DNA from: Aedes albopictus | Taxonomy: Eukaryota; Arthropoda; Insecta; Diptera; Culicidae | Reading direction: 5' to 3' | Assembly: GCF_035046485.1 (NCBI RefSeq) | Contig: NC_085138.1 | Span: 447,183,204-447,247,203 of the forward strand | DNA: 64,000 bases | Part shown: positions 5,960 to 58,500 of the stretch, one piece after another | How positions within the stretch are numbered: the first letter of the stretch is position 1 | Layout: each line of letters opens with the position of its first letter | Program-made: the position numbers and the translations under genes | The notes under the pieces: model-generated | The model's database searches: none | Told to the model about the DNA's origin: nothing | What the model saw: only the letters and a program-made list of their open reading frames with translations

Positions 5960-8694
5960 GGGCTGCAAAACGGTGAGTCGATAAGGAGAGCGTCCAATAT
6001 AGCTCTGGTCCTCACAAGTTCCTACCACATGCTTCCACGGGTCAAGCGATGACAAAGACCGCCAGCTAAAAGTTGTGTGCTTAGCTGGTAGTGCAGCCTG
6101 GGCACTGTTGTCCTTCTGACTTCAGCTAGATTGAGGAGGTACGATCCGAGTGTCTGTTCACCAAGGAGGTGCGGCTCAAACAGCGTCTGTTCTGGCATCC
6201 AGCGGCTGAGTAAGAAACGCTGCACCACGCCCAGCTAGATCCAAGGTGGTAGCCCCATCAGCGTGGTCGTCCCAGTGTTGGTTGGGACGTTAAACAGAAC
6301 TGGCACGATGGCCCTCCGGCGAGACAGGAGTGTTGGCGTAGGCCCAATAAGCCACCCGTAAAAATCCCCATTGCGAATAACATAGGAGAAAATACGACTC
6401 GATACAATCGGCAAAGACCCACGCGACGAAATAAGGACTACGATTGGAAACTTGGAACATGGAATTGCAAGTCACTAGGTTTCGCAGGATGTGACAGGAT
6501 AATCTACGACGAACTACATCCCCGCAACTTCGACATCGTGGCGTTGCAGGAACTTTGTTGGACTGGACAGAAAGTGTGGAAAAGCGGGCATCGAGCGGCT
6601 ACCTTCTACCAAAGCTGTGGCACCACCAATGAACTGGGAACAGGATTTATAGTGTTGGGCAAGATGCGACAACGTGTTATCGGGTGGCAGCCGATCAACG
6701 CAAGGATGTGCATGTTGAGAGTTAAGGGCCGTTTCTTCAACTACAGCATCATCAACGTCCACTGCCCACACGAAGGGAGACCCGATGACGAGAAAGAAGC
6801 GTTCTACGCGCAGTTAGAGCAAACATACGATGGTTGCTCGCCGCGTGACGTGAAAATCGTTGTCGGCGACATGAACGCGCAGGTAGGAAGGGAGGAATTG
6901 TACAGACCGGTAATCGGGCGAAACAGCCTGCACGCCGTATCGAATGATAACGGCCAGCGATGCGTAAACTTTGCAGCCTCCCGTGGTATGGTAGTCCGAA
7001 GCACCTTCTTCCCCCGCAAAGATATCCATAAAGCCACCTGGAGATCACCCGATCAACAAACAGAAAATCAAATCGACCACGTTCTAATCGACGGTAAATT
7101 CTTCTCGGATATAACCAACGTCCGCACATACCGCAGTGCGAATATAGATTCGGATCACTACTTAGTCGCTGTATGCATGCGCTCAAAACTTTCGACAGTT
7201 ATCACCACGCGTCGAAGTCGAACGCCGCGGCTCAACATCGAGCAACTTCGTAACGTAGAAGTGGCTCAAGACTACGCGCAGCAGTTAGCAGTGGCCCTAC
7301 CAACGGAAGAGCAGCTTGGCGCAGCTACACTTGAAGATGGCTGGAGGGACATCCGATCCGCCATAGGTAGTACCTCGGCTACAGCACTAGGCTTCGCGAC
7401 TCCGAATCACAGAAACGACTGGTACGACGGCGAATGTGAACAGTTGAAAAACGAGAAGAATGCAGCATGGGCGAGAATGCTGCAACACCGTACGAGAGCG
7501 AATGAGGCACGTTACAAACAGGCGCGGAACAGGCAGAACTCAGTCTTCCGGATGAAGAAGCGCCAGCAGGAAGAACGAGATCGCGAAGCGATGGAAGAGC
7601 TGTACCGCGCTAAGGACACACGAAAGTTCTACGAGAAGCTGAACCGCTCGCGCAGAGGCTTTGTGCCACAAGCCGACATGTGCCGAGATAATCACGGGAA
7701 TATTCTCACGAGCGAGCGTGAGGTGGTCGAGAGGTGGCGGCAGCATTACGATGAGCACCTCAATGGCGACGTTGCAAGTACCGAAGGTGGCGTGGTAACA
7801 GATCTAGGAGTATGTGCACAGGACGAAAGACTTCCTGCCCCTGACCTTCAAGAGATTGAGGAGGAGGTTGGCCGGTTGAAAAACAACAAAGCCGCTGGAG
7901 CAGATCAACTACCAAGCGAGCTTCTAAAATACGGTGGAGAAGCACTGGTGAGAGCACTACACTGGGTCATTACCAAGATTTGGGAGGAGGAAGTATTACC
8001 GGAGGAATGGATGGAAGGTATCGTGTGTCCCATCTACAAAAAGGGCGACAAGTTGGATTGCGGGAACTATCGCGCGATCACACTACTGAGCGCTGCCTAC
8101 AAGGTACTCTCCCAAATTTTATGCCGCCGTCTATCACCGATTGCAAGAGAGTTCGTGGGGCAATATCAGGCTGGATTCATGGGTGAACGCGCTACAACGG
8201 ACCAGATGTTCGCCATCCGCCAGGTGTTGCAGAAATGCCGCGAATACAACGTGCCCACACATCACTTGTTCATCGATTTCAAATCGGCGTATGATACAAT
8301 CGATCGAGAACAGCTATGGCAGATTATGCACGAATACGGATTCCCGGATAAACTGATACGGTTGATCAAGGCGACGATGGATCGAGTGATGTGCGTAGTT
8401 CGAGTATCAGGGACACTCTCGAGTCCCTTCGAATCTCGCAGAGGGCTACGGCAAGGTGATGGTCTTTCGTGCTTGCTGTTCAACATTGCTTTGGAGGGTG
8501 TAATAAGAAGAGCGGGGATAAACACGAGTGGGACGATTTTCACGAAGTCCGTTCAGCTGCTTGGTTTCGCCGATGATATTGATATTATTGCTCGTAAATT
8601 TGAGACGATGGCGGAAACGTACATCCGACTAAAGAGTGAAGCCAGGCGAATCGGATTAGTCATTAATGTGTCGAAGACAAAGTACATGATGGCA
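5960..8694 (+). mobile_element. RTE-type non-LTR retrotransposon, copy 1
   Basis: The 5' end begins GGGCTGCAAAACGGTGAG, exactly as copy 2 does at 54,746, so this is probably the true 5' terminus. About 580 bp of leader precede the endonuclease-RT frame. The element runs unbroken to the run of N at 8,695, and the sequence after the gap (9,195 on) is not RTE, so its 3' end lies in the gap or is deleted. The RTE assignment rests on APE endonuclease plus RT in one frame, the FADD motif and the total length of copy 2. The clade is inferred. Confidence 0.8.
6538..8694 (+). CDS. APE endonuclease-reverse transcriptase (RTE-type), 3' end lost in gap
   Basis: The encoded protein would nick the target and copy its own RNA by target-primed reverse transcription. 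The N-terminal APE endonuclease shows LQE near residue 5, 'GDMNAQVG' near residue 110 and SDH near residue 206. RT follows: 'GADQLPSELL' near 452, 'FIDFKSAYD' near 578, 'RRGLRQGDGLS' and FADD at 677-680. The frame is uninterrupted for 719 codons. The listed start is only the first possible start after in-frame sequence; endonuclease homology ('LGTWNCKS') continues upstream to about 6,448, so the true start lies further 5'. A C-terminal region present in copy 2 is missing here because of the gap. Confidence 0.85.
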
Positions 8695-9194
8695 NNNNNN
8701 NNNNNNNNNNNNNNNNNNNNNNNNNNNNNNNNNNNNNNNNNNNNNNNNNNNNNNNNNNNNNNNNNNNNNNNNNNNNNNNNNNNNNNNNNNNNNNNNNNNN
8801 NNNNNNNNNNNNNNNNNNNNNNNNNNNNNNNNNNNNNNNNNNNNNNNNNNNNNNNNNNNNNNNNNNNNNNNNNNNNNNNNNNNNNNNNNNNNNNNNNNNN
8901 NNNNNNNNNNNNNNNNNNNNNNNNNNNNNNNNNNNNNNNNNNNNNNNNNNNNNNNNNNNNNNNNNNNNNNNNNNNNNNNNNNNNNNNNNNNNNNNNNNNN
9001 NNNNNNNNNNNNNNNNNNNNNNNNNNNNNNNNNNNNNNNNNNNNNNNNNNNNNNNNNNNNNNNNNNNNNNNNNNNNNNNNNNNNNNNNNNNNNNNNNNNN
9101 NNNNNNNNNNNNNNNNNNNNNNNNNNNNNNNNNNNNNNNNNNNNNNNNNNNNNNNNNNNNNNNNNNNNNNNNNNNNNNNNNNNNNNNNNNNNNN
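8695..9194. other. Assembly gap of 500 N
   Basis: Exactly 500 unknown bases. The round number suggests a nominal gap size. It removes the 3' portion of RTE copy 1. Frames that read through it are artefacts. Confidence 0.98.
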
Positions 9195-9369
9195 TTTGAC
9201 ACCGGCTTATTGGCATAACCATTGCGATGTAAACATATGGAAGTTTGCTAAAAAAAATGTGTACATAAGAGAAAAATCCTTTTGTTGCCCAATTCTCACC
9301 ATTATTAATCAATTGTTGAACGGTTAATTCCGGAAGTTGAAATTTTGGATTATCTGTTACAAATTTGTC

Positions 9370-14793: not shown

Positions 14794-14798
14794 CCCAC
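14794..14798. repeat. Target site duplication of LTR element (left)
   Basis: CCCAC immediately precedes the left LTR, and the same CCCAC immediately follows the right LTR at 23,829-23,833. A 5-bp duplication fits Ty3/gypsy integrases. Confidence 0.85.
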
Positions 14799-15023
14799 TG
14801 TAGTATGAGAAAGCGATACGATGAATAAATGTAATAAAACTTGAAAACACCTGTGTTGAAATTCATTTGGGAAAGAATGCATTCCGATACAAGTAAAATT
14901 TTGATTCCGCTAAGCATATTTCCACTCAGAAACAAAAAGGGAGGAGTTAACTTTTCTAGATCGCTTCCCCTTCTTGGCTTCCCCTTGCTCGTTGGTGATT
15001 GGTGATTGAAGGTTCACTCAAGC

Positions 15024-15031
15024 TATAAAAG
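15024..15031 (+). promoter_or_regulatory. LTR TATA box
   Basis: TATAAAAG, with the copy in the right LTR at 23,303-23,310. Transcription would be expected to start about 25-32 bp downstream, which is where the LINE inserted in the left LTR. Confidence 0.7.
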
Positions 15032-15044
15032 GCGATGTCATTTC

Positions 15045-15057
15045 GGAGCAAGCTCAT
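15045..15057. repeat. 13-bp target duplication of the LINE (left copy)
   Basis: GGAGCAAGCTCAT at 15,045-15,057 is repeated exactly at 17,321-17,333. The uninterrupted right LTR has it once, at 23,324-23,336, which proves the insertion site. Confidence 0.95.
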
Positions 15058-17088
15058 CACCAGGACTTGAGCTCGGATCACCTCCCGGTGACATGCGAGC
15101 TTGAATGCGTCCCAACACAAATCCCACCGGCGATGAGACGGGACTACCACCGGGTGGACTGGGTGGCTTTCAGCCGCCTGGTGGACTCTAAACTTCCGGA
15201 AGGCCCGGAACTACCAACCGTTGAAGCCATCGAACGAAATCTGGACGTGTTCGAACAAGCCATCCGTACAGCCGAAGACACCTACGTCCGCTGGGTACCG
15301 GTGACACGCCGTTTCGCAGCCATTGATGACCAAACTCGCCAGATCATCCAACAACGCAACGCCGTCCGAAGACAATTCCAACGGACCGGGTGTCTGTTGA
15401 AAAAGCAGGAACTTTCTCTCCTCAACAACCAAATCAAGATCCGAATGGACGAGATACGGAACAAGCAATTCTCGGAAGACATCAGGCGGCTCGATGACCA
15501 TTCCAGACCCTTCTGGAAAGTGGCCAAAATCTTGAAGAAACGGCCACAAGCTGTCCCCCCACTGAAGGACGAAGTCGGTGGCCTCTTGGTCTCCCCGTCG
15601 GAGAAGGCAAACGCCATCGCCATCAAGCTGGTAGAGGCGCACAACCTCGGAGCCAGTATGTCAAGCCCCCATGAAGAAGCGGTCCAACGAACCATCAACC
15701 AACTCGAAGACAACGATGAAGCCCCTTTCGATGGACAGGTCACCGAAGACGAGGTCAGGTCGGCGATCAAGCGAACCAAAAATATGAAGGCCCCCGGCAA
15801 CGACGGAATATTCAACCTGGTTCTGAAGAAGCTCTCGGGCAAATCGTGCCGCTTCCTGGCAGCGATCTTCACCAGGTGCTTCCAGCTGAACCACTTCCCA
15901 ACCAGGTGGAAGATGGGGAAAGTCATCCCCATTCTGAAACCTGGGAAGGACCCAACGGCTGCATCAAGTTACCGGCCCATCACTTTGCTATCGGCAGTGA
16001 GTAAAGTGTTCGAGCGCCTGATCCTCCGACGTTTAATGGAACACATCGACGAAAGGAACCTCATCGTGCCTGAGCAGTTTGGATTCCGAAGGGGGCACTC
16101 CACCGTCCACCAGCTAGTGCGTGTGGAGAACATAATCCACCGGAACAAGGCCGTCTCGAAGAACACGGCCATGGTAGTGCTAGATGTTGAAAAGGCCTTC
16201 GACAACGTCTGGCACGATGGCCTCATCCACAAGCTGGCCCAGGCTGAGTTCCCCAGCTACCTGACGAGGATGGTAAGAGAATACCTAACCAACCGGTCTT
16301 TCCAGGTTTCCCTAGCAGGTACATCGTCCGGAGTCCAAGCTGTTCCAGCAGGCGTTCCCCAAGGCAGCCTCCTCGGTCCGATCCTGTACAATCTGTACAC
16401 CTCCGACATCCCGCAGCTCCCGGGTGACTGCTTCCTGGCACTGTATGCGGACGACAGTGCAATAGTGGCCAACGGCCGCACCCCACAGGCCTATCGCTCC
16501 CGGCTGCAACGAGGGGTCACCGCCTACGTAGACTACCTGTCCAGCTGGAAAATCAAGGTAAACGAGGCCAAAACCCAAGCGATTGTGTTCCGGCATCGAC
16601 CTTCTCCGAAGCTTCTCCCACCACCGGACTGCTACATCCGTATCAATGGCCGACCAATCGACTGGCTGGACGAGGTAGACTACTTGGGCGTCACGATGGA
16701 CAACAAGCGGATCTACCGTACCCACACCGACAAGCTTCGCAACAAGTGCATCGGGCTCCAAAAATCGCTATACCCGCTGATTTGTCGGCGGTCCAAACTG
16801 TCAAGGAGGAACAAACTGGCAGTACTGAAGGCGATCATCGCTCCGGTGATCAACTACGCCATGCCGGTGTGGGGTACGTGTGCAGAAACGCACAAGCAAA
16901 AGCTGCAGGTGGTGCAAAACCGGATCCTGCGCCAAATCCTCGACGCTCCCTTCGACACAAGGATCAGCGAACTACACCGAAGTGCAGAAATCAAGCCCGT
17001 CAGTGACCGCATCGAGGAAGCAATCGACAGCTTTATAGCTAAAGCCGAGGTCTCTGAACACCCGCTCATCCGAGCGTTGGTTACATAG
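15058..17088 (+). CDS. Jockey-clade reverse transcriptase (5'-truncated ORF2), intact frame
   Basis: The frame is open from the first base of the insert to TAG at 17,086. It starts with the endonuclease tail, SDHLPV, so most of the endonuclease and all of ORF1 are missing. RT motifs in order, numbered from 15,067: 'MKAPGNDG' near 240, 'PITLLSAVSKVFERL' near 305, 'QFGFRRGHST' near 338, 'LDVEKAFDNVWHD' near 373, 'GVPQGSLLGPILYN' near 430 and YADD at 460-463. The C-terminal part carries 'YAMPVWGTC' near 598. There is no native start codon, so the piece is unlikely to be translated as such. The clade is called from YADD and 'GVPQGS'. Confidence 0.88.
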   Translation, partial: HQDLSSDHLPVTCELECVPTQIPPAMRRDYHRVDWVAFSRLVDSKLPEGPELPTVEAIERNLDVFEQAIRTAEDTYVRWVPVTRRFAAIDDQTRQIIQQRNAVRRQFQRTGCLLKKQELSLLNNQIKIRMDEIRNKQFSEDIRRLDDHSRPFWKVAKILKKRPQAVPPLKDEVGGLLVSPSEKANAIAIKLVEAHNLGASMSSPHEEAVQRTINQLEDNDEAPFDGQVTEDEVRSAIKRTKNMKAPGNDGIFNLVLKKLSGKSCRFLAAIFTRCFQLNHFPTRWKMGKVIPILKPGKDPTAASSYRPITLLSAVSKVFERLILRRLMEHIDERNLIVPEQFGFRRGHSTVHQLVRVENIIHRNKAVSKNTAMVVLDVEKAFDNVWHDGLIHKLAQAEFPSYLTRMVREYLTNRSFQVSLAGTSSGVQAVPAGVPQGSLLGPILYNLYTSDIPQLPGDCFLALYADDSAIVANGRTPQAYRSRLQRGVTAYVDYLSSWKIKVNEAKTQAIVFRHRPSPKLLPPPDCYIRINGRPIDWLDEVDYLGVTMDNKRIYRTHTDKLRNKCIGLQKSLYPLICRRSKLSRRNKLAVLKAIIAPVINYAMPVWGTCAETHKQKLQVVQNRILRQILDAPFDTRISELHRSAEIKPVSDRIEEAIDSFIAKAEVSEHPLIRALVT

Positions 17089-17320
17089 TTTTTCAAATTT
17101 AGATTAAGTTAGGTTAAGTAGGTTATAAAATTGAAAACAAACACGATATTTCTAATATCAAAACGAAACAATTCACAACGAAAACACACAAAACACATTT
17201 TATACACATAAACAAACAAAACCAAAGGATGAAAAGATTGAACTCTGTAACACTTGAATAAGAAAATATGTAAAACAAACAAAATATTGAATAAACATGA
17301 ATTTAAAGGTAAAAAAAAAA
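17089..17320 (+). other. LINE 3' UTR and poly(A) tail
   Basis: An A-rich 3' UTR follows the ORF2 stop. AATAAA occurs at about 17,289, and the insert ends in ten A at 17,311-17,320 directly before the second target duplication. Confidence 0.8.
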
Positions 17321-17380
17321 GGAGCAAGCTCATTCTTTGGTCGAACGTTGGAAGTGAAGCAGCAGCAGCAGCAGCAGCAG

Positions 17381-17524
17381 CCAGCAGCAGGAGCAGAAGA
17401 GTAAAAACTCTCTTTCCCGACCACCAGTAACGTCGGCGTGAAGCAGCAGCAGCCAGCAGCAGGAGCAGAAGAGTAAAAACTCTCTCTCCCGACCACCAGT
17501 AACGTCGGCGGTGTAGCAGCGGCG
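17381..17524 (+). repeat. 72-bp tandem duplication present only in the left LTR
   Basis: The phrase CCAGCAGCAGGAGCAGAAGA starts at 17,381 and again at 17,453, a period of 72 bp, and each copy is followed by the 'gtaaaaactctct' segment. The right LTR has it once, near 23,384. This accounts for the whole length difference between the LTRs (823 against 751 bp). Slippage or unequal exchange seeded by the GCA run is likely. Confidence 0.85.
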
Positions 17525-17731
17525 GCGGAGCCACGAGCGGATTGCGTGGAGCGTTGTAGTGAAACAACCTCTGTTTGACCGTCGGCAACGGCAGCAGAGC
17601 CTCGTGTGTTGGTAGTGTAGCATCGACGGAAGAGCCACGAGCGGTTGGCGTGAAACGAGGTGAAGTAAACTCGATCGGTGGAGCAAGCAGTGCAGCGCTT
17701 CGAAGAAGTAAGCATTCAACCAGAAATCAAT

Positions 17732-17747
17732 AGCCCTTTTTAGGGCT
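17732..17747 (+). promoter_or_regulatory. Hairpin resembling a histone mRNA 3' stem-loop
   Basis: AGCCCT-TTTT-AGGGCT forms a 6-bp stem with a 4-base loop. The size and the U-rich loop are like metazoan histone 3' stem-loops (stem GGYYCU/AGRRCC), but the bottom pair is A-U where histones have G-C. The right LTR copy is at 23,663-23,678. Function unknown. Confidence 0.4.
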
Positions 17748-17802
17748 GCGAAGTTATCAGAAATAATTTGACGTACAGTTATTAGAAATAATTTTCCACA
17801 AC

Positions 17803-17819
17803 GGTCCTTTATCAGGGCC
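17803..17819 (+). promoter_or_regulatory. Second histone-like hairpin
   Basis: GGTCCT-TTATC-AGGGCC forms a 6-bp stem that fits the histone consensus GGYYCU/AGRRCC exactly, but the loop is five bases long where histones have four. The copy in the right LTR is at 23,734-23,750. Lies 71 bp after the first hairpin and 63 bp before the Gag start codon. Confidence 0.4.
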
Positions 17820-17881
17820 AAGAGTTATCAAATTAATTTCTCCGTCGTTTTACCAGCGGTGATACCGGTTCTCGAGGAACC

Positions 17882-20800
17882 ATGTCCGGTTACGACAATG
17901 GCGCAGCGGGTAGCGAAGCCGAATCGGAGGCTCAATCGGAGGCGAATGTGTTGAGGTGAGTAAAAAAAAAAATGGAATAGTGAATCGTTGATAAAAGTGA
18001 GAAATTACTATGAACCTAGATTGAAAACGCGAGAATAGTGAATTGAAAAGGCAAGTGTTATTAATGTTGGACTCTGATTGAAAAGGCGGAAGTCAGAAAC
18101 AGTGAGCCCCGATTGGAAAGGCGGGTGTTGGAAAATTGGGACTCCGATTGAAAAGGCGGATGTCAGAAATGGTGAACCCCGATTGGAAAGGCGGGTGTTG
18201 GAATATTTGGGCACCGATTGGAAAGGCGGATGTCACGGGTTTCAGGACGCGAAATTCCATTGAAAAGACGAACAACTGAAATACTAAATCCCAAATATAG
18301 TGACTAATGTACTCCGATTAAATAGGCGTTTTTCAATCACGGTTCAATGTTAAAAGTAGATAACAGATTGATTTGCTCGGAACCGTTATCTTAAGGAGAA
18401 TTTTTGTTTCCTTTTACAGGATTAAGAGGCGGAAGATTACGAGAAAAGTGTTGGCCGACGAATTATCCAAAGTGAAGGCCGAATTGGAGAGAACACGTTT
18501 GGAGAATGAAGAGTTGAGCCGGATGTTAGTGGCCAAAGAACAGGACGAAGAGGAATTCTGTGAAGCAAGGTCAAGTACAATGCGCGAATGTCCAGCCGCG
18601 GCAAACGAGACGCTGCTCACCACGATGAATGCTATGTCGCTGAGTACGCTCAATATTCCTGAGTGTGCACCAACAGCGGGCGAATCAGAACTAACCAAGC
18701 GCGACTACGATCACTGGAAGAACGTCTTGACCGCATCCATGCATCTCATCCAAGCTGTCGATGAATCCACGAAAATCTATCTGTTCCGCATCAAAGCAGG
18801 GCCAATGCTGATCGAACTACTTGAAGGCACCACCACACAGCAAGGAATGCCAGATGAGCAACTGTTCCCGTACTCGAATGCGATCGCTCGCCTTGATGCC
18901 CACTTTGGATCCAGAGCTTACATGCTTTCACAGCGAAGTAAGTTGGCGAATATGGTACAACGAAGTGGAGAACAGAACGTCCAGTACGTAAAACGAGTTG
19001 CAGCCGCGGCAAAACTGTGTTCCTACAAACCTGATGAGGAATTCGAGGCCATTTCGCGTACGGTGACGAGAGGATCAACTGACAGTCGGGTAAGAATTCT
19101 CGCCTATAGGGTTCTAACCGACGGAGGAAATCTGAGCGAATTTATTGACCAAGTACACATCCGTGAAGTGGAACTAGAGAACGAGAATGACTATCGAAGA
19201 TTGCACCAGAAGCAACCAGTTGCAGTGGCGGCCATTACACGCCAAACGGATGACAGCATTCAGCGTCAGCGGGGTTCGTTCGAACCATCCAGAGGATACA
19301 ACAGTGGCCGGGGTAGAGGAGCCTTTGGTCGTGGGGGCTCACGAAACCAGAGACAGGGCCGAGCCTGTTGGAGGTGCTTGAGTACATATCACGCCGCTGA
19401 AGAATGTTTTCACGCCGACAAACTATGCCGCAATTGCAATCGACGAGGGCACATCGCTCGAGCTTGTGCGAATCCAACCAAGCAAGAACAACGCAAGCGA
19501 AATTGGACAGGAGAAGAAACGGAACCCCCAACAAAAATTGCCATGATCCAGAAAGCAGAAGATGTTGAAGAAGATTCGAAGGTAAATGACGTTGATAATG
19601 TTTAAAACTTTGAAATGTGCTTAATGCTCTATTTTTGATTAATTACTGCATTATTGAATTCGATTGATCAAAAAGTAGATCCTTAAAACAGTTGAATTTT
19701 GAAATATAAGAAAATGATATGGAAAAGTAAATAATGAAAATTGTTGGTTTTATGATGAATTATTACAGGTGACACAGATCTTATCATGCGATCAAGATAC
19801 ATCGACTATTGGCAGAGTCCGATCTAGCGTCCCAGACCAAAACGCGGCATATATCATGGCGTATGTTGCGGGAATAAAGGTTCCGTTTTTCATAGACTCT
19901 GGTGCAGAAGTCAATACAATTACATCAGAGTCTTTCAATGCCATTCTCCAGAGTGAAAGTTCCAAAGAGAACATGCACGATTTGAAATACGGATCCGACA
20001 AAGTGCTACGTGCATATGCGTCACAAGGAAAGATTGATGTAGTAGCAACATTCTCGGCAGAACTCTTCGTTTCAGAAGAAAGACCGACGACAATTGAAAA
20101 GTTTTATGTGGTGCGTGAATCCAGAGCGCTTCTTGGATTCAACACTGCCGTCCGCTACAGTTTGTTGGCAATAGGATTGGACGTTCCAGTTGTTGGAGAC
20201 ACTGATTCGTATTGGCGATGCGAATTTGCGGTGCGAAATGTACAAGCATCTTCCCCGCAGGAATTTCCTAAGTTCAACGTTCCTGCAGTAAAACTGAACT
20301 ACGATAGGTTGATGCCACCTTCGAGAAACGTATACACGCACATTCCAGCAGCTTTCAAAGATCTGACAAGACAAAAACTGAACGAGCTGCAAGAAACTGG
20401 AATTATTGAAAAAGTGTCGAAAGATATGGATAAGAGCTTCTGTTCTTCCTTGCTAGTGATTCCAAAAGGAAAAACGGACATCCGCCTCGTCGTCGATTTA
20501 CGTGGCCCGAATAAGTGCATCATCAGAACACCATTCAAGATGCCAACATTTGAGTCGATTTTGTTGCAGTTGCATGGTGCAAAATACTTTTCTACAGTCG
20601 ATCTGAAAAACGCTTTTTTTCACATCGAGCTGGATGAGACGTCGAGGCACCTCACGAATTTTTTTGCCGGAGAAGCTCTGTATAGATGTTGCCGACTGCC
20701 TTTCGGACTCACGAACGCTCCTGATATCTTCCAGGAAGTTATGCAAACCGTGATACTGGAGGATTGCGAAGGAACTGTTAACTATCTGGACGATGTGATG

Positions 20801-23057
20801 AAATTCGGAGCAACAAAGGAGGAGCATGACCGTAATCTACAGAAAGTTATGAAAAGGTTGGAAGATCATAACGTGGTAATTAATCATGAAAAGTGTTCTT
20901 TTGGAAAGGAAATAGTCACGTTCTTGGGTTTTCGAGTATCTGACGAAGGTTGGCAAATCGAGGATGAGAAGATCGGTGCAATTAAGGACGCTCGGAAGCC
21001 CGAATCCACAGCAGAAGCAAAAAGTTTTCTGGGACTCGTTACGTTCATCGATCGATTCATTCCTCAGAGGGCAGATAAGACGCGTTACTTGCGAGAACTG
21101 TCCAATGCACGAGATTTTTATTGGAACCAGGACCTTGACGATGAATTTCAATACCTGAAAACTAATGCGTGGAAACACATAAAGACTCTGGGATACTTCA
21201 ATCGAGAGGATGAGACAGAGCTGTATGTAGATGCTTCCCCATATGGATTAGGGGCCGTGTTGGTCCAATATGATGCGGAATCTAAACCTCGAATCATTTC
21301 CTGCGCATCGAAGGCGTTAACGATAGCAGAAAAGAAATATCCCCAAACGCAAAAGGAGGCCCTTGCGATGGTCTGGGGAGTTGAGCGGTTTTCCATGTAC
21401 CTGTTGAACATTCATTTCACAATTCGGACGGATGCAGAATCTAACGAGTTCATATTCGGTGGATCGCACAGAATTGGCAAGAGAGCTGTCTCTAGGGCGG
21501 AGGCATGGGCATTAAGGCTGCAGCCGTTCAATTTCAAGGTACGTTATTTTATGTTTCTAGATAGATAATCGTTAATTGATCGGTTGTATTCAGGTTGTTC
21601 GAGTGCCAGGAGAGACGAACATGGCCGATGCATTGTCCCGTCTTGTGAAGGAATCACAATCGGCTGATCCATTTGATGATTCCAATGAGAAACATCTGTT
21701 GTACTATCTGGATACTGGTACAATGGAGTTTACTTGGGAGGATATCGAAATTGAAGCTGAAAAGGACGCGGAACTGATTCTGGTTCGAGAAGCAATCAGA
21801 AATAACCAGTGGGACAAGAAATTGAAGCGGTATGAAGCAGAGGCGAAGAATTTGAGTGTACTCGGAGCACTGGTCTTCATGAACGATAGAGTGATTTTGC
21901 CGTTCGCTATTCGCAACAAAGCTCTCAATTCAGCGCATCAAGGACATATGGGCGCCGCATCAATGAAAAAAATATTGAGAAGCTATTTCTGGTGGCCATG
22001 TATGTCCAAGGAAGTTGAAACCTTTGTGAATGGATGTGAAACTTGTTTCCGACTGTCTAGGAAGAATCCGCCCATTCCATTGACTTCCCGTGAGCTTCCC
22101 GAAGGTCCATGGGAAGTTCTCCAAATTGACTTTTTTTCATTCAAAGACTGCGGTACTGGAGAATTTCTCGTCGTGGTAGATACCTACTCGCGATATCTCC
22201 ACGTCGTAGAAATGAAACATATTGACGCAGATAGTACCAACGCAGCGCTGTGTAAAATTTTTGAAGTATGGGGATACCCAATGGCTATTCACAGCGACAA
22301 CGGTCCCCCCTTCCAAGGAGAACAGTTTGTCAAAACGTGGGAAGATCGAGGCGTCAAAATCAGAAAGGCGATTCCATTGAGCGCACAATCAAATGGTGCT
22401 GTAGAGCGGCAGAACAAAGGGCTGAAAGAAGCTTTGACCGCCGCCAAACTTGACAATGTCAATTGGAAAAGGGCCTTGGAACAGTATTTGCATATGCACA
22501 ATAAGGTCCGGCCATTGTCAAGATTGGGCGTTACGCCATTTGAACTACTTGTTGGCTGGCGATTCAGGGGAACGTTCCCGTATTTGTGGGAGAAACTTCC
22601 CACAGATCAAATCGATAGAACTGACATACGCGAAAAGGATAAATTAACTAAACTTGACAGTAAACGATACGCAGATATGAGCAGAGGCGCCAAGGAGTCC
22701 GAGATAACGGTTGGGGACAGAGTCCTTTTAGCTCAAAACACTCGACAGAAAGGAGACCCGATGTTTTCAGAAGATCGCTTTACCGTCCTGACGAGGGAAG
22801 GTGCAAAAGTGGTGGTACAAAGTGACAGGGGTGTCCAATACTCGAGAAATGTGCAAGATGTTAAGAAGGTTCCTATTATGCTGCGAGACAGTCACAGTGA
22901 AGAGCCGATAGACGAAGGAGACGCTTCATCAGCAGCTGAATTTCTGGATTTTCATACAAAACAGCCAACAGCGGAGGTTCTATTGGACAGACCCCAACGT
23001 TCACGGAAGAAACCGTCCCGTTTTAATGACATGGTTTTGTTTTGTGTTTACGATTGA
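17882..23057 (+). CDS. Spliced Gag-Pol polyprotein of the LTR element
   Basis: Exons 17,882-17,955, 18,420-19,581, 19,769-21,538 and 21,594-23,057 total 4,470 nt, or 1,489 residues plus stop. All junctions have GT...AG ends. Exon 1 ends in phase 2, and its last codon is completed as AGG (Arg) by the first base of exon 2. Introns 2 and 3 lie exactly between codons. The intron 3 junction restores the usual gypsy RNase H-to-integrase linker ('VPGETNMADALSRL'). The start ATG lies in the LTR after a good context (GAACC). No stops or frameshifts are present within exons. Splicing is inferred from the sequence and is not shown experimentally. Confidence 0.75.
17899..17913 (+). promoter_or_regulatory. 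Primer binding site, probably tRNA-Ser, inside Gag exon 1
   Basis: One base after the LTR end the sequence reads TGGCGCAGCGGGTAG. TGG pairs with the tRNA CCA end, and the remainder resembles the complement of an insect tRNA-Ser 3' end with one mismatch, as far as I recall that tRNA. It lies within codons 6-11 of Gag, so the primer site is also translated. Confidence 0.6.
17956..18419 (+). other. Intron 1 of the LTR element (464 bp)
   Basis: The donor AG|GTGAGT is near-ideal, and the acceptor is TTTCCTTTTACAG|G. The donor sits about 58 bp after the LTR, where retroviruses have their major splice donor. Stops occur in the frame read on from exon 1. An alternative start for an unspliced product would be a non-ATG codon near 18,373. 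Confidence 0.75.
18065..18262 (+). repeat. 35-bp tandem repeat inside intron 1
   Basis: The core 'cgattggaaaggcgg' recurs near 18,073, 18,109, 18,143, 18,179 and 18,213, a spacing of about 35 bp, with alternating 'tgtcagaaa' and 'tgttggaa' continuations that give a 70-bp higher-order unit. Imperfect cores continue to about 18,330. Confidence 0.75.
18420..19605 (+). CDS. Gag (exon 2 through retained intron 2 to stop)
   Basis: If intron 2 is not removed, Gag stops at TAA 19,603-19,605 after seven intron-encoded residues (VNDVDNV). The N-terminal part has a predicted coiled coil with heptad leucines (18,450-18,540, 'LADELSKVKAELERTR'). The central part is the capsid-like region. An Arg/Gly-rich linker precedes two CCHC zinc knuckles at 19,366-19,470 (C-x2-C-x4-H-x4-C twice), which would bind the genomic RNA. 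The frame is intact. Confidence 0.85.
19582..19768 (+). other. Intron 2, between gag and pol (187 bp)
   Basis: Donor AAG|GTAAATGA, acceptor TTATTACAG|GTGACA. It is AT-rich like a dipteran intron. Both ends fall between codons, and the intron contains the Gag stop, so splicing fuses Gag to Pol in frame. Confidence 0.75.
19769..21568 (+). CDS. Protease-reverse transcriptase-RNase H (pol exon 3)
   Basis: A retropepsin comes first, with the active-site motif 'FIDSGAEVN' at about 19,889-19,915. RT shows 'DLKNAFFHIELDE' near 20,602, 'LPFGLTNAPDIFQ' near 20,697 and the catalytic YLDD at 20,783-20,794. RNase H follows, with 'ELYVDASPYGLGAVL' near 21,220. The frame has no ATG at its start, consistent with reaching it by splicing. 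Read through into intron 3 it ends at TAA 21,566-21,568, which would give a PR-RT-RNase H product without integrase. Confidence 0.88.
   Translation: MTQILSCDQDTSTIGRVRSSVPDQNAAYIMAYVAGIKVPFFIDSGAEVNTITSESFNAILQSESSKENMHDLKYGSDKVLRAYASQGKIDVVATFSAELFVSEERPTTIEKFYVVRESRALLGFNTAVRYSLLAIGLDVPVVGDTDSYWRCEFAVRNVQASSPQEFPKFNVPAVKLNYDRLMPPSRNVYTHIPAAFKDLTRQKLNELQETGIIEKVSKDMDKSFCSSLLVIPKGKTDIRLVVDLRGPNKCIIRTPFKMPTFESILLQLHGAKYFSTVDLKNAFFHIELDETSRHLTNFFAGEALYRCCRLPFGLTNAPDIFQEVMQTVILEDCEGTVNYLDDVMKFGATKEEHDRNLQKVMKRLEDHNVVINHEKCSFGKEIVTFLGFRVSDEGWQIEDEKIGAIKDARKPESTAEAKSFLGLVTFIDRFIPQRADKTRYLRELSNARDFYWNQDLDDEFQYLKTNAWKHIKTLGYFNREDETELYVDASPYGLGAVLVQYDAESKPRIISCASKALTIAEKKYPQTQKEALAMVWGVERFSMYLLNIHFTIRTDAESNEFIFGGSHRIGKRAVSRAEAWALRLQPFNFKVRYFMFLDR
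21539..21593 (+). other. Intron 3, between RNase H and integrase (55 bp)
   Basis: Donor AAG|GTACGT, acceptor TTGTATTCAG|GTTG. At 55 bp it is of typical small-intron size for flies and mosquitoes. Both ends are phase 0. The intron carries an in-frame stop at 21,566-21,568. Confidence 0.75.
21594..23057 (+). CDS. Integrase (pol exon 4)
   Basis: The first residues ('VPGETNMADALSRL') complete the RNase H linker. The zinc-binding HHCC domain is at about 21,938-22,055 (HQGH...C-x2-C). The catalytic core has D at 22,128, D at 22,296 in 'HSDNGPPF' and E at 22,404 in 'GAVERQN', with 35 residues between the second D and E, the DD35E spacing. The stop is TGA at 23,055, just inside the polypurine tract. 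The frame is intact. Confidence 0.88.
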   Translation, partial: VVRVPGETNMADALSRLVKESQSADPFDDSNEKHLLYYLDTGTMEFTWEDIEIEAEKDAELILVREAIRNNQWDKKLKRYEAEAKNLSVLGALVFMNDRVILPFAIRNKALNSAHQGHMGAASMKKILRSYFWWPCMSKEVETFVNGCETCFRLSRKNPPIPLTSRELPEGPWEVLQIDFFSFKDCGTGEFLVVVDTYSRYLHVVEMKHIDADSTNAALCKIFEVWGYPMAIHSDNGPPFQGEQFVKTWEDRGVKIRKAIPLSAQSNGAVERQNKGLKEALTAAKLDNVNWKRALEQYLHMHNKVRPLSRLGVTPFELLVGWRFRGTFPYLWEKLPTDQIDRTDIREKDKLTKLDSKRYADMSRGAKESEITVGDRVLLAQNTRQKGDPMFSEDRFTVLTREGAKVVVQSDRGVQYSRNVQDVKKVPIMLRDSHSEEPIDEGDASSAAEFLDFHTKQPTAEVLLDRPQRSRKKPSRFNDMVLFCVYD

Positions 23058-23074
23058 AGAGTAGAGAAGTGGAG
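23056..23074 (+). promoter_or_regulatory. Polypurine tract
   Basis: A 19-base stretch with only two pyrimidines (GAAGAGTAGAGAAGTGGAG) ends three bases before the right LTR. It should prime plus-strand DNA synthesis. It begins within the integrase stop codon. Confidence 0.75.
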
Positions 23075-23077
23075 CAT

Positions 23078-23828
23078 TGTAGTATGAGAAAGCGATACGA
23101 TGAATAAATGTAATAAAACTTGAAAACACCTGTGTTGAAATTCATTTGGGAAAGAATGCATTCCGATACAAGTAAAATTTTGATTCCGCTAAGCATATTT
23201 CCACTCAGAAACAAAAAGGGAGGAGTTAACTTTTCTAGATCGCTTCCCCTTCTTGGCTTCCCCTTGCTCGTTGGTGATTGGTGATTGAAGGTTCACTCAA
23301 GCTATAAAAGGCGATGTCATTTCGGAGCAAGCTCATTCTTTGGTCGAACGTTGGAAGTGAAGCAGCAGCAGCAGCAGCAGCAGCCAGCAGCAGGAGCAGA
23401 AGAGTAAAAACTCTCTCTCCCGACCACCAGTAACGTCGGCGGTGTAGCAGCGGCGGCGGAGCCACGAGCGGATTGCGTGGAGCGTTGTAGTGAAACAACC
23501 TCTGTTTGACCGTCGGCAACGGCAGCAGAGCCTCGTGTGTTGGTAGTGTAGCATCGACGGAAGAGCCACGAGCGGTTGGCGTGAAACGAGGTGAAGTAAA
23601 CTCGATCGGTGGAGCAAGCAGTGCAGCGCTTCGAAGAAGTAAGCATTCAACCAGAAATCAATAGCCCTTTTTAGGGCTGCGAAGTTATCAGAAATAATTT
23701 GACGTACAGTTATTAGAAATAATTTTCCACAACGGTCCTTTATCAGGGCCAAGAGTTATCAAATTAATTTCTCCGTCGTTTTACCAGCGGTGATACCGGT
23801 TCTCGAGGAACCATGTCCGGTTACGACA
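23078..23828 (+). repeat. Right LTR (uninterrupted, 751 bp)
   Basis: TGTAGTATGAG...GGTTACGACA. Carries the TATA box at 23,303, a (GCA)n run near 23,361, both histone-like hairpins, and a solitary ATG at 23,813 that would start Gag if this were the left LTR. Two AATAAA motifs lie at about 23,103 and 23,112. Confidence 0.92.
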
Positions 23829-23833
23829 CCCAC
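23829..23833. repeat. Target site duplication of LTR element (right)
   Basis: CCCAC, identical to 14,794-14,798. Confidence 0.85.
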
Positions 23834-24829: not shown

Positions 24830-26490
24830 TTCCCTTTGAATTCTATGAAGGATTTTCTAAGAATCCTTATAGAGAATACTCCATGTATGAGACGGATTGT
24901 CTCATAGTTCCGAGATGAATTCTCCCAGAATAATGTGATAGATTGTCTCAGAATTCTAAGATAACCAGATTCTTAAGAGAAATATAAAAGATTTTTTCCA
25001 AAGTCTGAGAGGATTCTTCCTGGAAGGGATTACGAATACTTCTAGAACGGACGAGTATCTTGAGAAGGATTCTCGTGAATTCTGAGGGGCATTACCACAT
25101 AAAACAGAAAAATCACTGCAGATTCCGGAAAGAAATTCCCCCCAAAACTATGAAAGGACTCCCCTAAACTCCTGAAAGGGGGATTGTCCCAGAACTCTGA
25201 GAATGATTCCTCTAGAATACTTTAAATTATTACACCAGAATCTCAAGAGAATCTTTCCATAATCTCGTCAGGAATTCTGGATATCTGGGAGCAACTGCTC
25301 CAGAATACAGAAAACAGAAATCTACTGGGATTCTCGTAGAATGCTGAGAAGGATTTCTTCCGAACCCTAAAAGGAATCACAAAAAATCTATGCGAGGGTT
25401 CTCCAAAATCCAGAGTTCTCTAGAGCTCGTGAGAGATTCTTCAATAATCAATAATTCTGAAAGGAAGTGCCCTGGAATCTTGAAAAATAAAGCCCCAGAA
25501 TCCCGAGGAATTCTCCAGAATCATGAGATAAATTCCCCAGAATCTTAAGAGAAATTTCCCCAGAATCCTGACGAGGAATACCCCAGAAAGCCGAATTGTC
25601 AGAGAATCTTGGGAAGAGTACCCGCAGAATACTTAGTGATTTTCCCATAATATAAAAAAAAATCTGACGCAGAATCCTGAGAAGGGTACCACTAGAATCC
25701 TGTGTGGAGTTCCCCTAGAATTCTAAGAAATATTCCCCCAGAATTCTGAGAGGAGTTTCGCCACAATTCTGAGAATGATTCTCCAAGAAGTCTGAGAGGA
25801 GTTGCTGAGAATGCTGAGAAAGATTTTCTCAGAACTCTGAGTGAGGGTCTTCCAGAATCCTTAGAGGAATCAACCCGGATCATCCAGATTTTTTTTAGAA
25901 TCCTGAAAGGGATTTCAGATTTTGGTAGGGAACCCTGGTACGAAATACCGTGCTATAAATGAATTCCCCTAGCATCCAGAGATTTTCTTAAAATTCTGAA
26001 AGGTATTCTCAACAAACACTACTGAGAAAAAATCCCCCAGAATGTTTGAAGGGATTCTTCCATAACTCTGTGGATTTCTCTAAAATTCTGTGATAGATTC
26101 CTTCAAAATGCTGGAAATTATTACACCAGCATCCTGAGAGGCCTTGTTCTAGTGAAGAGAGAACGGCTCTTCCAATAGGAATTCTCCTTGAATTCAATTA
26201 AGGATTTTCCTAGAATCCTGGGAGAGATTACTCCAATTTTCTAGAATGGATTCTCTCAGAATCTTTTATAGGATTTTTTCCAGAATCATGAGGGATTTCC
26301 TCAGATTCCCGAGATGAATTCTCCCTGAATCCTGTGACGGATTGCATGAGAATCAGGAGAGTTGTTTTTCCTCATCATTCTCCCAGAATGCTTAGAAGGA
26401 TATCCCCAGAACTCACTTGCGGATTCTTCTAGAACCCTGGAAGAAATTCTCCGGCAGTATTAAAAGACATCCAATTAGAATCCAGTTAGA
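24830..26490. repeat. Large block of degenerate AGAATCCTGAGAGG-type repeat
   Basis: About 1.7 kb of units like 'ccccagaatcctgagaggaa', 25-35 bp apart and strongly diverged, with no exact array. The same pattern resumes at 27,263-27,440, so the element at 26,492-27,262 appears to have been inserted into the block. Confidence 0.65.
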
Positions 26491-55548: not shown

Positions 55549-58500
55549 GTGGCGTTGCAGGAACTTTGTTGGACTGGACAGAAAGTGTGGAAAAGCGGGC
55601 ATCGAGCGGCTACCTTCTACCAAAGCTGTGGCACCACCAATGAACTGGGATCAGGATTTATAGTGTTGGGCAAGATGCGACAACGTGTGATCGGGTGGCA
55701 GCCGATCAACGCAAGGATGTGCATGTTAAGAGTTAAGGGCCGTTTCTTCAACTACAGCATCATCAACGTCCACTGCCCACACGAAGAGAGACCCGATGAC
55801 GAGAAAGAAGCGTTCTACGCGCAGTTAGAGCAAACATACGATGGTTGCTCGCCGCGTAACGTGAAAATCGTTGTCGGCGACATGAACGCGCAGGTAGGAA
55901 GGGAGGAAATGTACAGACCGGTAATCGGGCGAAACAGCCTGCACGCCGTATCGAATGAAAACGGCCAGCGATGCGTAAACTTTGCAGCCTCCCGTGGTAT
56001 GGTAGTCCGAAGCACCTTCTTCCCCCGCTAAGATATCCACAAAGCCACCTGGAGATCACCCGACCATCAAACAGAAAACCAAATCGACCACGTTCTAATC
56101 GACGGTAAATTCTTCTCAGATATAACCAACGTCCGCACATACCGCAGTGCGAATATAGATTCGGATCACTACTTAGTCGCTGTATGCATGCGCTCAAAAC
56201 TTTCGACAGTTATCACCACGCGTCGAAGTCGAACGCCGCGGCTCAACATCGAGCAACTTCGTAACGTAGAAGTGGCTCAAGACTACGCGCAGCAGCTAGC
56301 AGTGGCCCTACCAACGGAAGAGCAGCTTGGCGCAGCTACACTTGAAGATGGCTGGAGGGACATCCGATCCGCCATAGGTAGTACCTCGGCTACAGCACTA
56401 GGCTTCGCGACTCCGAATCACAGAAACGACTGGTACGACGGCGAATGTGAACAGTTGAAAAACGAGAAGAATGCAGCATGGGCGAGAATGCTGCAACACC
56501 GTACGAGAGCGAATGAGGCACGTTACAAACAGGCGCGGAACAGGCAGAACTCAGTCTTCCGGATGAAGAAGCGCCAGCAAGAAGAACGAGATCGCGAAGC
56601 GATGGAAGAGCTGTACCGCGCTAAGGACACACGAAAGTTTTACGAGAACCGCTCGCGCAGAGGCTTTGTGCCACAAGCCGACATGCACCCTTAAATGAAA
56701 CAACACAGCGCACGAGTAACTTTCACGCAGCGAGCAAAAAGACAAAAGAATTTTCACGCAGATTTGTGTAACACCGGATCAGCACATTTTTTGTGTTGAT
56801 CCGGTGTTACACAAATCTGCGTGAAAATTCTTTTGTCTTTTCGGTCGCTGCGTGAAAGTTACTCGTTGCGCTGTGTACATCGAGTTCTGCGTGTGTGCCG
56901 AGATAATCACGGGAATATTCTCACGAGCGAGCGTGAGGTGGTCGAGAGGTGGCGGCAGCATTACGATGAGCACCTCAATGGCGACGTTGCAAGTACCGAA
57001 GGTGGCGTGGTAACAGATCTAGGAGTATGTGCACAGGACGAAAGACTTCCGGCCCCTGACCTTCAAGAGATTGAGGAGGAGGTTGGCCGGTTGAAAAACA
57101 ACAAAGCCGCTGGAGCAGATCAACTACCAAGCGAGCTTCTAAAATACGGTGGAGAAGCACTGGTGAGAGCACTACACTGGGTCATTACCAAGATTTGGGA
57201 GGAGGAAGTATTACCGGAGGAATGGATGGAAGGTATCGTGTGTCCCATCTACAAAAAGGGCGACAAGTTGGATTGCGGAAACTACCGCGCGATCACACTA
57301 CTGAGCGCTGCCTACAAGACACTCTCCCAAATTTTATGCCGCCGTCTATCACCGATTGCAAGAGAGTTCGTGGGGCAATATCAGGCTGGATTTATGGGTG
57401 AACGCGCTACAACGGACCAGATGTTCGCCATCCGCCAGGTGTTGCAGAAATGCCGCGAATACAACATGCCCACACATCACTTGTTCATCGATTTCAAATC
57501 GGCGTATGATACAATAGATCGAGAACAGCTATGGCAGATTATGCACGAATACGGATTCCCGGATAAACTGATACGGTTGGTCAAGGCGACGATGGATCGA
57601 GTGATGTGCGTAGTTCGAGTATCAGGGACACTCTCGAGTCCCTTCGAATCTCGCAGAGGGTTACGGCAAGGTGATGGTCTTTCGTGCTTGCTGTTCAACA
57701 TTGCTTTGGAGGGTGTAATAAGAGGAGCGGGGATAAACACGAGTGGGACGATTTTCACGAAGTCCGTTCAGCTGCTTGGTTTCGCCGATGATATTGATAT
57801 TATTGCTCGTAAATTTGAGACGATGGCGGAAACGTACATCCGACTAAAGAGTGAAGCCAGGCGAATCGGATTAGTCATTAATGTGTCGAAGACAAAGTAC
57901 ATGATGGCAAAGGGCTCCAGGGAGGAATCACCGCGCCCGCCACCCCGAATTCATATCGACGGTGATGAAGTCGAGGCAGTTGAAGAATTCGTGTACTTGG
58001 GCTCACTGGTGACCGACGACAACGACACCAGCAGAGAAATTCAGAGGCGCATTGTGGCAGGAAATCGTGCCTACTTTGGACTCCGCAGAACTCTACGATC
58101 GAATAAAGTTCGCCGTAACACGAAGTTAACTATCAACAAAACGCTGATTAGACCGGTCGTCCTCTATGGGCAGTGCCATTGGACACGAAACATGGACCCT
58201 GCGTGCAGAGGACCAACGCGCCCTTGGAGTTTTCGAACAGAAGGTGTTGCGGCGTACCATCTACGGTAGAGTGCAGATGAAAGACGGGACTTGGGAAAGG
58301 CGAATGAATCAGCCATCGTCCATACTGCGAAAATCGGGAGGCTACGGTGGGCGGGCCACGTCATCAGGATGTTGGATAGCAACTCGATTAAAATGGTTCT
58401 CGCAAGCCATCCGACCGGTACCTACAAGAAGACGTAGTGCGCAGCGAACTAGGTGGGTCGATCAAGTGGAGGACGATCAGCAGACCCTACGCAGAGTGCG

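What the first reader, a model, noticed from the sequence alone, without database searches (positions are those of the whole stretch)
17882..23057. LTR retrotransposon whose gag-pol is split by three spliceosomal-type introns that decide which polyprotein is made
Seen: three gaps with GT...AG ends (17,956-18,419; 19,582-19,768; 21,539-21,593), each restoring an undamaged frame at the base. Intron 2 carries the only Gag stop, and intron 3 carries the stop that would remove integrase. Known: Ty3/gypsy elements usually use frameshift or readthrough for Gag-Pol, and introns are normally lost during retrotransposition unless unspliced RNA is packaged. Inferred: retention of intron 2 gives Gag, retention of intron 3 gives Gag-PR-RT-RNase H, and full splicing gives everything. 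The element would thus use alternative splicing as its Gag:Pol and Pol:IN switch, with unspliced genomic RNA packaged. I do not recall a description of this arrangement.
Basis: partly seen in the sequence, partly recalled or inferred. Interest (0 to 1): 0.88.

Follow-up and report, generated by a model that had tools for sequence, protein, structure and literature searches.

The report
Retrotransposon split by three introns
A recently inserted jumping gene, probably of a mosquito, carries three intron-like gaps in its protein-coding region; relatives share the first two, which suggests that splicing, not ribosome slippage, decides which of its proteins are made, although no RNA evidence was available.

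Summary
The three GT...AG gaps are real and exactly placed. Each is the best-scoring frame-restoring GT-AG pair in its gap, within the limits scanned, between undamaged gag, PR-RT-RNase H and integrase exons, in a copy with identical LTRs. They are not private to this copy. Listed protein relatives (named ones all from mosquitoes) show edges of introns 1 and 2 in diverged families. Intron 3 occurs in the nearest subclade, and one close relative lacks it. The Gag stop seven codons into intron 2 keeps its position in 17 of 19 relatives, so Gag from intron-2-retained RNA looks like a selected product. The stop inside intron 3 lies at no fixed distance. With intron 1 kept, the frame from the LTR ATG stops at once, so fully unspliced RNA should not make full-length Gag. 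Pol frames of other families end at other, clade-specific positions, perhaps different introns. The principle (retained intron gives the short product, splicing gives Gag-Pol) is known from the plant element Ogre. Three introns, the leader intron and the shifting third intron look new. No RNA data could be examined.

The parts
14794..14798 (+). Target-site duplication CCCAC, left copy
14799..15057 (+). 5' LTR, first part (starts TGTAGT; TATAAA at about 15024, by its place in the 3' LTR)
   Evidence: 0 mismatches to the 3' LTR over 259 nt
15058..17320 (+). 5'-truncated non-LTR retrotransposon nested in the 5' LTR, with A-tail and 13-bp duplication of LTR sequence
   Evidence: RVT_1 8.5e-41; duplication GGAGCAAGCTCAT
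17321..17897 (+). 5' LTR, second part, with one extra 72-nt tandem copy compared with the 3' LTR
   Evidence: 505 aligned nt, 0 mismatches; period 72
17882..17955 (+). Exon 1: start codon inside the LTR; continues through the presumed primer-binding site (TGGCGCAGCG, from 17899)
   Evidence: PBS assignment to tRNA-Ser is recalled
17956..18419 (+). Intron 1 (464 nt, phase 2); if kept, the frame from the LTR ATG stops at once (AGG TGA)
   Evidence: compatible acceptor edges in relatives
18069..18235 (+). 35/70-nt tandem repeat array inside intron 1 (candidate packaging signal, inference only)
   Evidence: intron 1 folds no better than shuffles, z -0.45
18420..19581 (+). Exon 2: Gag with zinc-knuckle region
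   Evidence: zf-CCHC E 0.0011, 19.4 bits, under the Pfam cut-off of 20.8; 41 relatives
19582..19768 (+). Intron 2 (187 nt, phase 0, 24% G+C) with the Gag stop at 19603-19605
19769..21538 (+). Exon 3: protease (DSGAEVN, by eye), reverse transcriptase, RNase H
   Evidence: RVT_1 3.5e-28, RT_RNaseH 5.6e-26; best-matching solved chains: 4ol8_A (RT/RNase H) and 7q5b_A (Ty3)
21539..21593 (+). Intron 3 (55 nt, phase 0) with a stop at 21566-21568
21594..23057 (+). Exon 4: integrase (H2C2 and rve), stop at 23055-23057
   Evidence: Integrase_H2C2 2.9e-14, rve 4.5e-13
23078..23828 (+). 3' LTR, 751 nt, TG...CA
23829..23833 (+). Target-site duplication CCCAC, right copy

Best explanation
This is a recently inserted Ty3/gypsy LTR retrotransposon, probably of a mosquito, whose gag-pol is expressed through spliceosomal introns. 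Proposed working: (1) RNA keeping all three introns is not translated into full-length Gag or Pol and is the form that is packaged and copied; this copy, young and with all three introns, implies that such RNA was reverse-transcribed. (2) Removal of intron 1 with intron 2 kept gives the Gag mRNA, ending seven residues into intron 2. (3) Removal of introns 1, 2 and 3 gives Gag-PR-RT-RH-IN. A donor of intron 2 that lacks the usual G at +5 keeps its splicing partial and so sets the Gag:Pol ratio. Intron 3 is a subclade-specific intron and probably not a dedicated integrase switch. Shown: exon/intron edges, frames, sharing of edges and of the Gag stop position. Inferred: splicing, ratios, packaging.
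For: Best-scoring splice pairs and exact frames. LTRs identical over 259+505 nt and a target duplication, so the intron-bearing form was copied recently. Gag relatives end with a short tail beginning at the donor: exactly 7 aa in 17 of 19, first residue V in 18 of 19, pairwise Gag identity median 69%, against 5.4% expected per copy for a 7-aa tail in random DNA of this composition. In those 18 the second residue is T (7), M (5), N (3), K (2) or I (1), which puts A at donor position +4 and never G at +5; in intron 3 +5 decodes as G in 5 of 6 decodable cases (window, P0001, P0003, P0005, P0007; not P0004; P0006 undecidable). Read by eye: pol relatives open just before the intron 2 acceptor (...Q|V in P0001, P0003, P0004, P0007, P0010, P0011), and six Gag relatives are compatible with the intron 1 acceptor at the same phase 2 (P0240, P0242, P0244, P0245, P0254, P0267). 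Deposited gene models join an exon 1-like motif to Gag and keep the intron 2 tail (P0250, P0253, P0256); 8 of 14 annotated models join gag to pol. Relatives without intron 3 are colinear across it (FKVVRVSGE, FKVERIPGN).
Against: No RNA read was examined. 'lgn' proteins may come from DNA or RNA contigs; the tool does not say. None of 76 non-annotated proteins joins gag to pol, although the search's length limit would hide a full polyprotein. Gene models are predictions, and I could not see whether reads support them. In the window itself the donor of intron 2 scores only a little below that of intron 3 (5.10 against 5.75), so 'weak donor' rests on the missing G at +5 in relatives. Unspliced RNA could still make an N-truncated Gag from an in-frame ATG at 18523, the last of 13 ATGs listed. 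With good sites at intron 1, how fully unspliced RNA escapes splicing is unexplained. The 5' LTR of this copy is split just after its TATA box, so this copy may be silent. The conserved tail is not independent evidence per copy, since the copies are related.
Confidence: 0.7

Rival explanations
1. The introns are real but removed constitutively and independently; they have no switching role, and Gag is made from the full polyprotein by protease or from leaky leftovers.
For: High-scoring donor and acceptor at intron 1, and no large difference between the donors of introns 2 and 3 in the window (7.49, 5.10, 5.75); intron 3 tails vary in length.
Against: The Gag stop position in intron 2 is kept in 17 of 19, and 18 of 18 decodable donors lack G at +5, which constitutive removal does not predict.
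Confidence: 0.18
2. The gaps are not introns: Pol and integrase are separate frames expressed by recoding (frameshift, readthrough) or internal initiation.
For: Three separate open frames are what the DNA shows; most Gypsy-superfamily elements use frameshifting (stated in PMC3735527, passage).
Against: Frames do not overlap at either junction. Exon 4 starts in mid-linker, and relatives run through this point colinearly. Splice pairs rank first in all three gaps.
Confidence: 0.06
3. The gaps are insertions or decay private to this copy.
For: The 5' LTR is disrupted by a nested element.
Against: Relatives at about 63-86% identity share edges; LTRs have 0 mismatches; near-identical Gag (P0234, 99%) and integrase (P0121, 100%) records exist.
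Confidence: 0.02
4. Intron 3 is a dedicated switch that makes Gag-PR-RT-RH without integrase.
For: Its stop lies exactly before integrase; other families have pol frames ending at other points between RNase H and the integrase core, as if interruption there were favoured.
Against: Tail lengths of 1 to 45 aa; absence from P0002 and from P0101, the latter with non-homologous ends; other families with frame ends inside RT or RNase H; and proteins that run on without interruption for 468-506 residues (P0019, P0021, P0057, P0061, P0066, P0067).
Confidence: 0.15

Closest known systems
Ogre (plant Ty3/gypsy; pea, Medicago)
   [quoted passage not shown] the 2008 original was not held, and the 2003 one was not looked up).
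   [quoted passage not shown] here it lies between Gag and protease, with a further leader intron and a third intron before integrase, and in what is probably an insect.
copia, BARE1 and EVADE (Ty1/copia)
   Same: Splicing sets Gag:Pol; BARE keeps translated and replicated RNA pools apart (passages of PMC3735527 and PMC12786077).
   Different: There the spliced RNA makes Gag; here the RNA that keeps intron 2 should make Gag.
Mag lineage of mosquito Ty3/gypsy elements (Culex survey)
   Same: tRNA-Ser PBS in many families, mostly 5-bp target duplications, tandem repeats in the 5' UTR of three families (PMC3286476, Results part 1 of 4).
   Different: LTR 751 nt here against 119-304 nt there; the passages I read do not mention introns of the elements themselves. 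No tree with named elements was made.
Retroviruses and Cer1 of C. elegans
   Same: Unspliced genomic RNA must leave the nucleus although it holds splice sites (PMC10309623, start of abstract in search listing).
   Different: Those make GAG and POL from unspliced RNA; here unspliced RNA should make neither in full.

Membership tests
Ty3/gypsy (Metaviridae) LTR retrotransposon | Order Gag, PR, RT, RNase H, IN | tested here: met
   Pfam domains in order over three exons, zinc knuckle under cut-off; protease motif by eye; Ty3 among the best-matching solved chains
Ty3/gypsy (Metaviridae) LTR retrotransposon | LTRs TG...CA with short target duplication | tested here: met
Ty3/gypsy (Metaviridae) LTR retrotransposon | tRNA primer-binding site after the 5' LTR | tested here: inconclusive
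   TGGCGCAGCG at 17899; match to tRNA-Ser is recalled, no mosquito tRNA was compared (ARAGORN, bacterial code, found none in the window)
Errantivirus (gypsy with env) | env ORF after integrase | tested here: not met
   Integrase ORF ends at 23057 and the 3' LTR starts at 23078
Mag lineage | RT-RH-IN groups with Mag in a tree | not tested
   No named Mag sequence was compared
Mag lineage | LTR length as in Culex Mag families (119-304 nt) | tested here: not met
   751 nt against Table 1 of PMC3286476
Ogre | Intron between protease and RT | tested here: not met
   Intron 2 is between Gag and protease
Ogre-like splicing control (mechanism) | Intron retained in a share of transcripts, removed in the rest | not testable with these tools
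   No RNA reads; indirect support from the Gag stop position

The most novel reading that the evidence does not exclude
A whole lineage of mosquito Ty3/gypsy elements runs on splicing: genomic RNA keeps all introns and is not translated into full-length products, and two old introns (leader and gag|pol) produce Gag and Gag-Pol mRNAs. In addition, individual families have repeatedly gained further introns at different positions of pol, so that retroelements, which should erase introns at every cycle, accumulate them.
Probability: 0.45. Interest if true: 0.82.

Novelty: new variant of a known kind. Interest (0 to 1): 0.62.

Why it matters
An element copied through RNA should lose introns, so keeping three demands that unspliced RNA be selectively packaged. 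If confirmed, this would be an animal counterpart of Ogre in which translated and replicated RNA pools are parted by splicing, and a natural system for watching intron gain and for asking how unspliced RNA is exported and chosen.

Tried and rejected
Own-genome search for other copies: the genome search was busy at every try, so no DNA of sister copies was compared and the host was not identified. Contig scans: no relative in viral contigs; three distant hits at 30-35% identity in genome contigs, not used. A second copy in the window: 957 24-mer hits outside the element, from 8693 on, were not confirmed by blastn, which found only the element itself; I take them for runs of N matched by the N spacer of my own script, since the ORF there reads X. 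Structured packaging signal in intron 1: folding no better than shuffles, z -0.45. Frameshift: rejected because the frames do not overlap. Ogre's 2008 paper: not held. Ten paper searches ran; one more request failed on wording.

Full report
What is there. An LTR retrotransposon runs from 14799 to 23828 with a 5-bp target duplication (CCCAC). The 3' LTR is 751 nt. The 5' LTR is identical to it over 259 plus 505 aligned nt (0 mismatches) but is split by a 2.26-kb non-LTR element (RVT_1 8.5e-41) inserted soon after the TATA box, with a 13-bp duplication, and it carries one extra 72-nt tandem copy. The insertion of the LTR element is therefore recent, but its promoter is now probably broken. The host was not identified directly; that it is a mosquito is inferred from the relatives.

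Coding anatomy. The ATG at 17882 lies in the LTR and the frame runs through the presumed primer-binding site (exon 1, 17882-17955). Gag follows in 18420-19581, protease-RT-RNase H in 19769-21538, and integrase in 21594-23057. Pfam gives RVT_1 3.5e-28, RNase H 5.6e-26, H2C2 2.9e-14 and rve 4.5e-13; the Gag zinc knuckle scores just under its cut-off. Among solved structures exon 3 matches best an RT/RNase H chain (4ol8_A) and Ty3 Gag-Pol (7q5b_A). No env ORF fits between 23057 and the 3' LTR at 23078.

The three gaps as introns. Scored with recalled insect-like matrices, the called pairs rank first among the frame-restoring GT-AG pairs found within the limits I set: 16, 16 and 12 pairs for gaps 1, 2 and 3. 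Donor scores are 7.49, 5.10 and 5.75; acceptors 10.82, 4.28 and 3.05. Introns 2 and 3 are A+T-rich (24% and 29% G+C; intron 1 39%) against 45-50% in exons 2 to 4. The frames on either side of gaps 2 and 3 do not overlap, which excludes a single ribosomal frameshift.

Relatives. Separate searches with exon 3, exon 4 and exon 2 gave 278, 238 and 41 proteins at E up to 0.001; 120, 120 and 41 were listed and only these were used. The organisms named in the lists are all mosquitoes (Aedes, Ochlerotatus, Armigeres, Culex, Sabethes, Wyeomyia, Topomyia, Uranotaenia, Malaya, Anopheles). Many proteins carry only the source tag 'lgn', which I take (recalled) to be assemblies of public read sets; whether DNA or RNA is not stated.

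Intron 2. Gag relatives end just past the exon edge. In 17 of 19 close relatives (P0234-P0251 and P0255) the tail is exactly 7 residues (P0240 has 6, P0250 has 9); in 18 of 19 it begins with V. Pairwise Gag identity has a median of 69% and one of 171 pairs exceeds 90%. Random DNA of the intron's composition gives a 7-residue tail in 5.4% of trials. The copies are related, so this is not 19 independent tests, but the tail letters vary while the stop stays. The second residue is T, M, N, K or I, which puts A at donor position +4 and never G at +5. In the window, however, this donor scores only a little below that of intron 3, so how weak it is remains open. Pol relatives begin just before the acceptor with ...Q|V (read by eye).

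Intron 1. Six Gag relatives (P0240, P0242, P0244, P0245, P0254, P0267) open with residues compatible with ...AG|G at the same phase 2 (read by eye). P0236 and several gene models (P0250, P0252, P0253, P0256) join the exon 1 motif (DNGAAGS-like, in the window encoded by the primer-binding site) to exon 2. P0236, P0250, P0253 and P0256 also keep the intron 2 tail, which is the predicted Gag mRNA, if they reflect RNA. With intron 1 kept, translation from the LTR ATG ends after 25 residues; a truncated Gag from the in-frame ATG at 18523, the last of 13 ATGs listed, is not excluded. Intron 1 contains a 35/70-nt tandem array but no unusual fold. Its role in packaging is inference.

Intron 3. In the window and P0001, P0003, P0004, P0005, P0006 and P0007 (76-86% identity) the frame runs past ...FK and stops after 17, 9, 6, 45, 1 and 2 residues in these relatives (9 in the window). 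P0002 (83%) and P0101 (82%, with non-homologous ends) run straight on, and families at 61-69% are colinear without it (FKVERIPGN). Donor position +5 decodes as G in 5 of 6 decodable cases. So intron 3 is young or was lost in P0002, or P0002 reflects a partly spliced RNA; its stop is not conserved in position.

Other families. Pol ORFs of other clades end at other recurring points. After RNase H these are VPG|E phase 1, SRL, TQ|V phase 0, DTG, W73, F95, R200, K208 and Q232 of exon 4. Points near residue 359 (P0092, P0098) and at 495 (P0063, P0097) of exon 3 also recur. On a 60-row quick tree these labels, set by eye by me, are clustered: 23 changes for 14 labels (with 'none' and 'unassigned' counted among them) against 42.7 in shuffles, 0 of 200 as low. 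SRL, W73, Q232 and TQ are each one side of a branch; FK needs 2 changes, VPG 3, DTG 2, and F95, R200 and K208, with two rows each, are not joined. SRL includes three near-copies. The acceptor-side ORF P0152, on a contig of the same printed length as P0024, reads like a splice acceptor, and P0158 with P0026 is compatible with one. Thirteen of the 60 rows were left unassigned, at least six proteins run on uninterrupted, and some ends may be frameshifts or contig ends. This is suggestive of repeated intron gain, not proof.

What is known. [quoted passage not shown] A review names Ogre and EVADE as exceptions among plant elements, which generally lack introns (PMC12786077). BARE and copia splice to make Gag (PMC3735527). 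Two mosquito Ty3/gypsy surveys (PMC3286476: passages and Results part 1 of 4; PMC3026039: passages) did not mention introns of the elements in what I read. My searches of the held library (listings capped) showed no description of an intron-bearing insect gag-pol that I recognised; most subscription papers are not held.

Verdict. Observation confirmed. Gag:Pol control by splicing is likely, a dedicated integrase switch unlikely, and both are untested at the RNA level.

Noticed in passing
15058-17320: A 5'-truncated non-LTR retrotransposon with an open RT frame sits in the 5' LTR just after its TATA box, with a 13-bp duplication; it probably silences this copy.
   Followed up: partly
17370-17520: 72-nt tandem duplication in the 5' LTR that the 3' LTR lacks, although the rest is identical.
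   Followed up: partly
6253-9327 and 56800-58269: Two long ORFs that look by eye like endonuclease/RT of one non-LTR family; the first contains a run of unknown bases.
   Followed up: no
24891-26361: Degenerate direct repeats (AGAATTCTGAGA-like); 9 copies of a 69-nt reference at 60% identity or more, some spaced by 23 nt.
   Followed up: no
relatives P0092, P0098 (exon 3 residue about 359; P0095 close by) and P0063, P0097 (residue 495): Pol frames of other families end at shared points inside RT and RNase H, reading by eye like phase-1 splice donors (G|GTAA).
   Followed up: partly
relatives P0016, P0017 and P0230 (exon 4 residue 200): Donor-side and acceptor-side edges at the same residue of the integrase core, reading by eye like a phase-2 intron.
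   Followed up: partly
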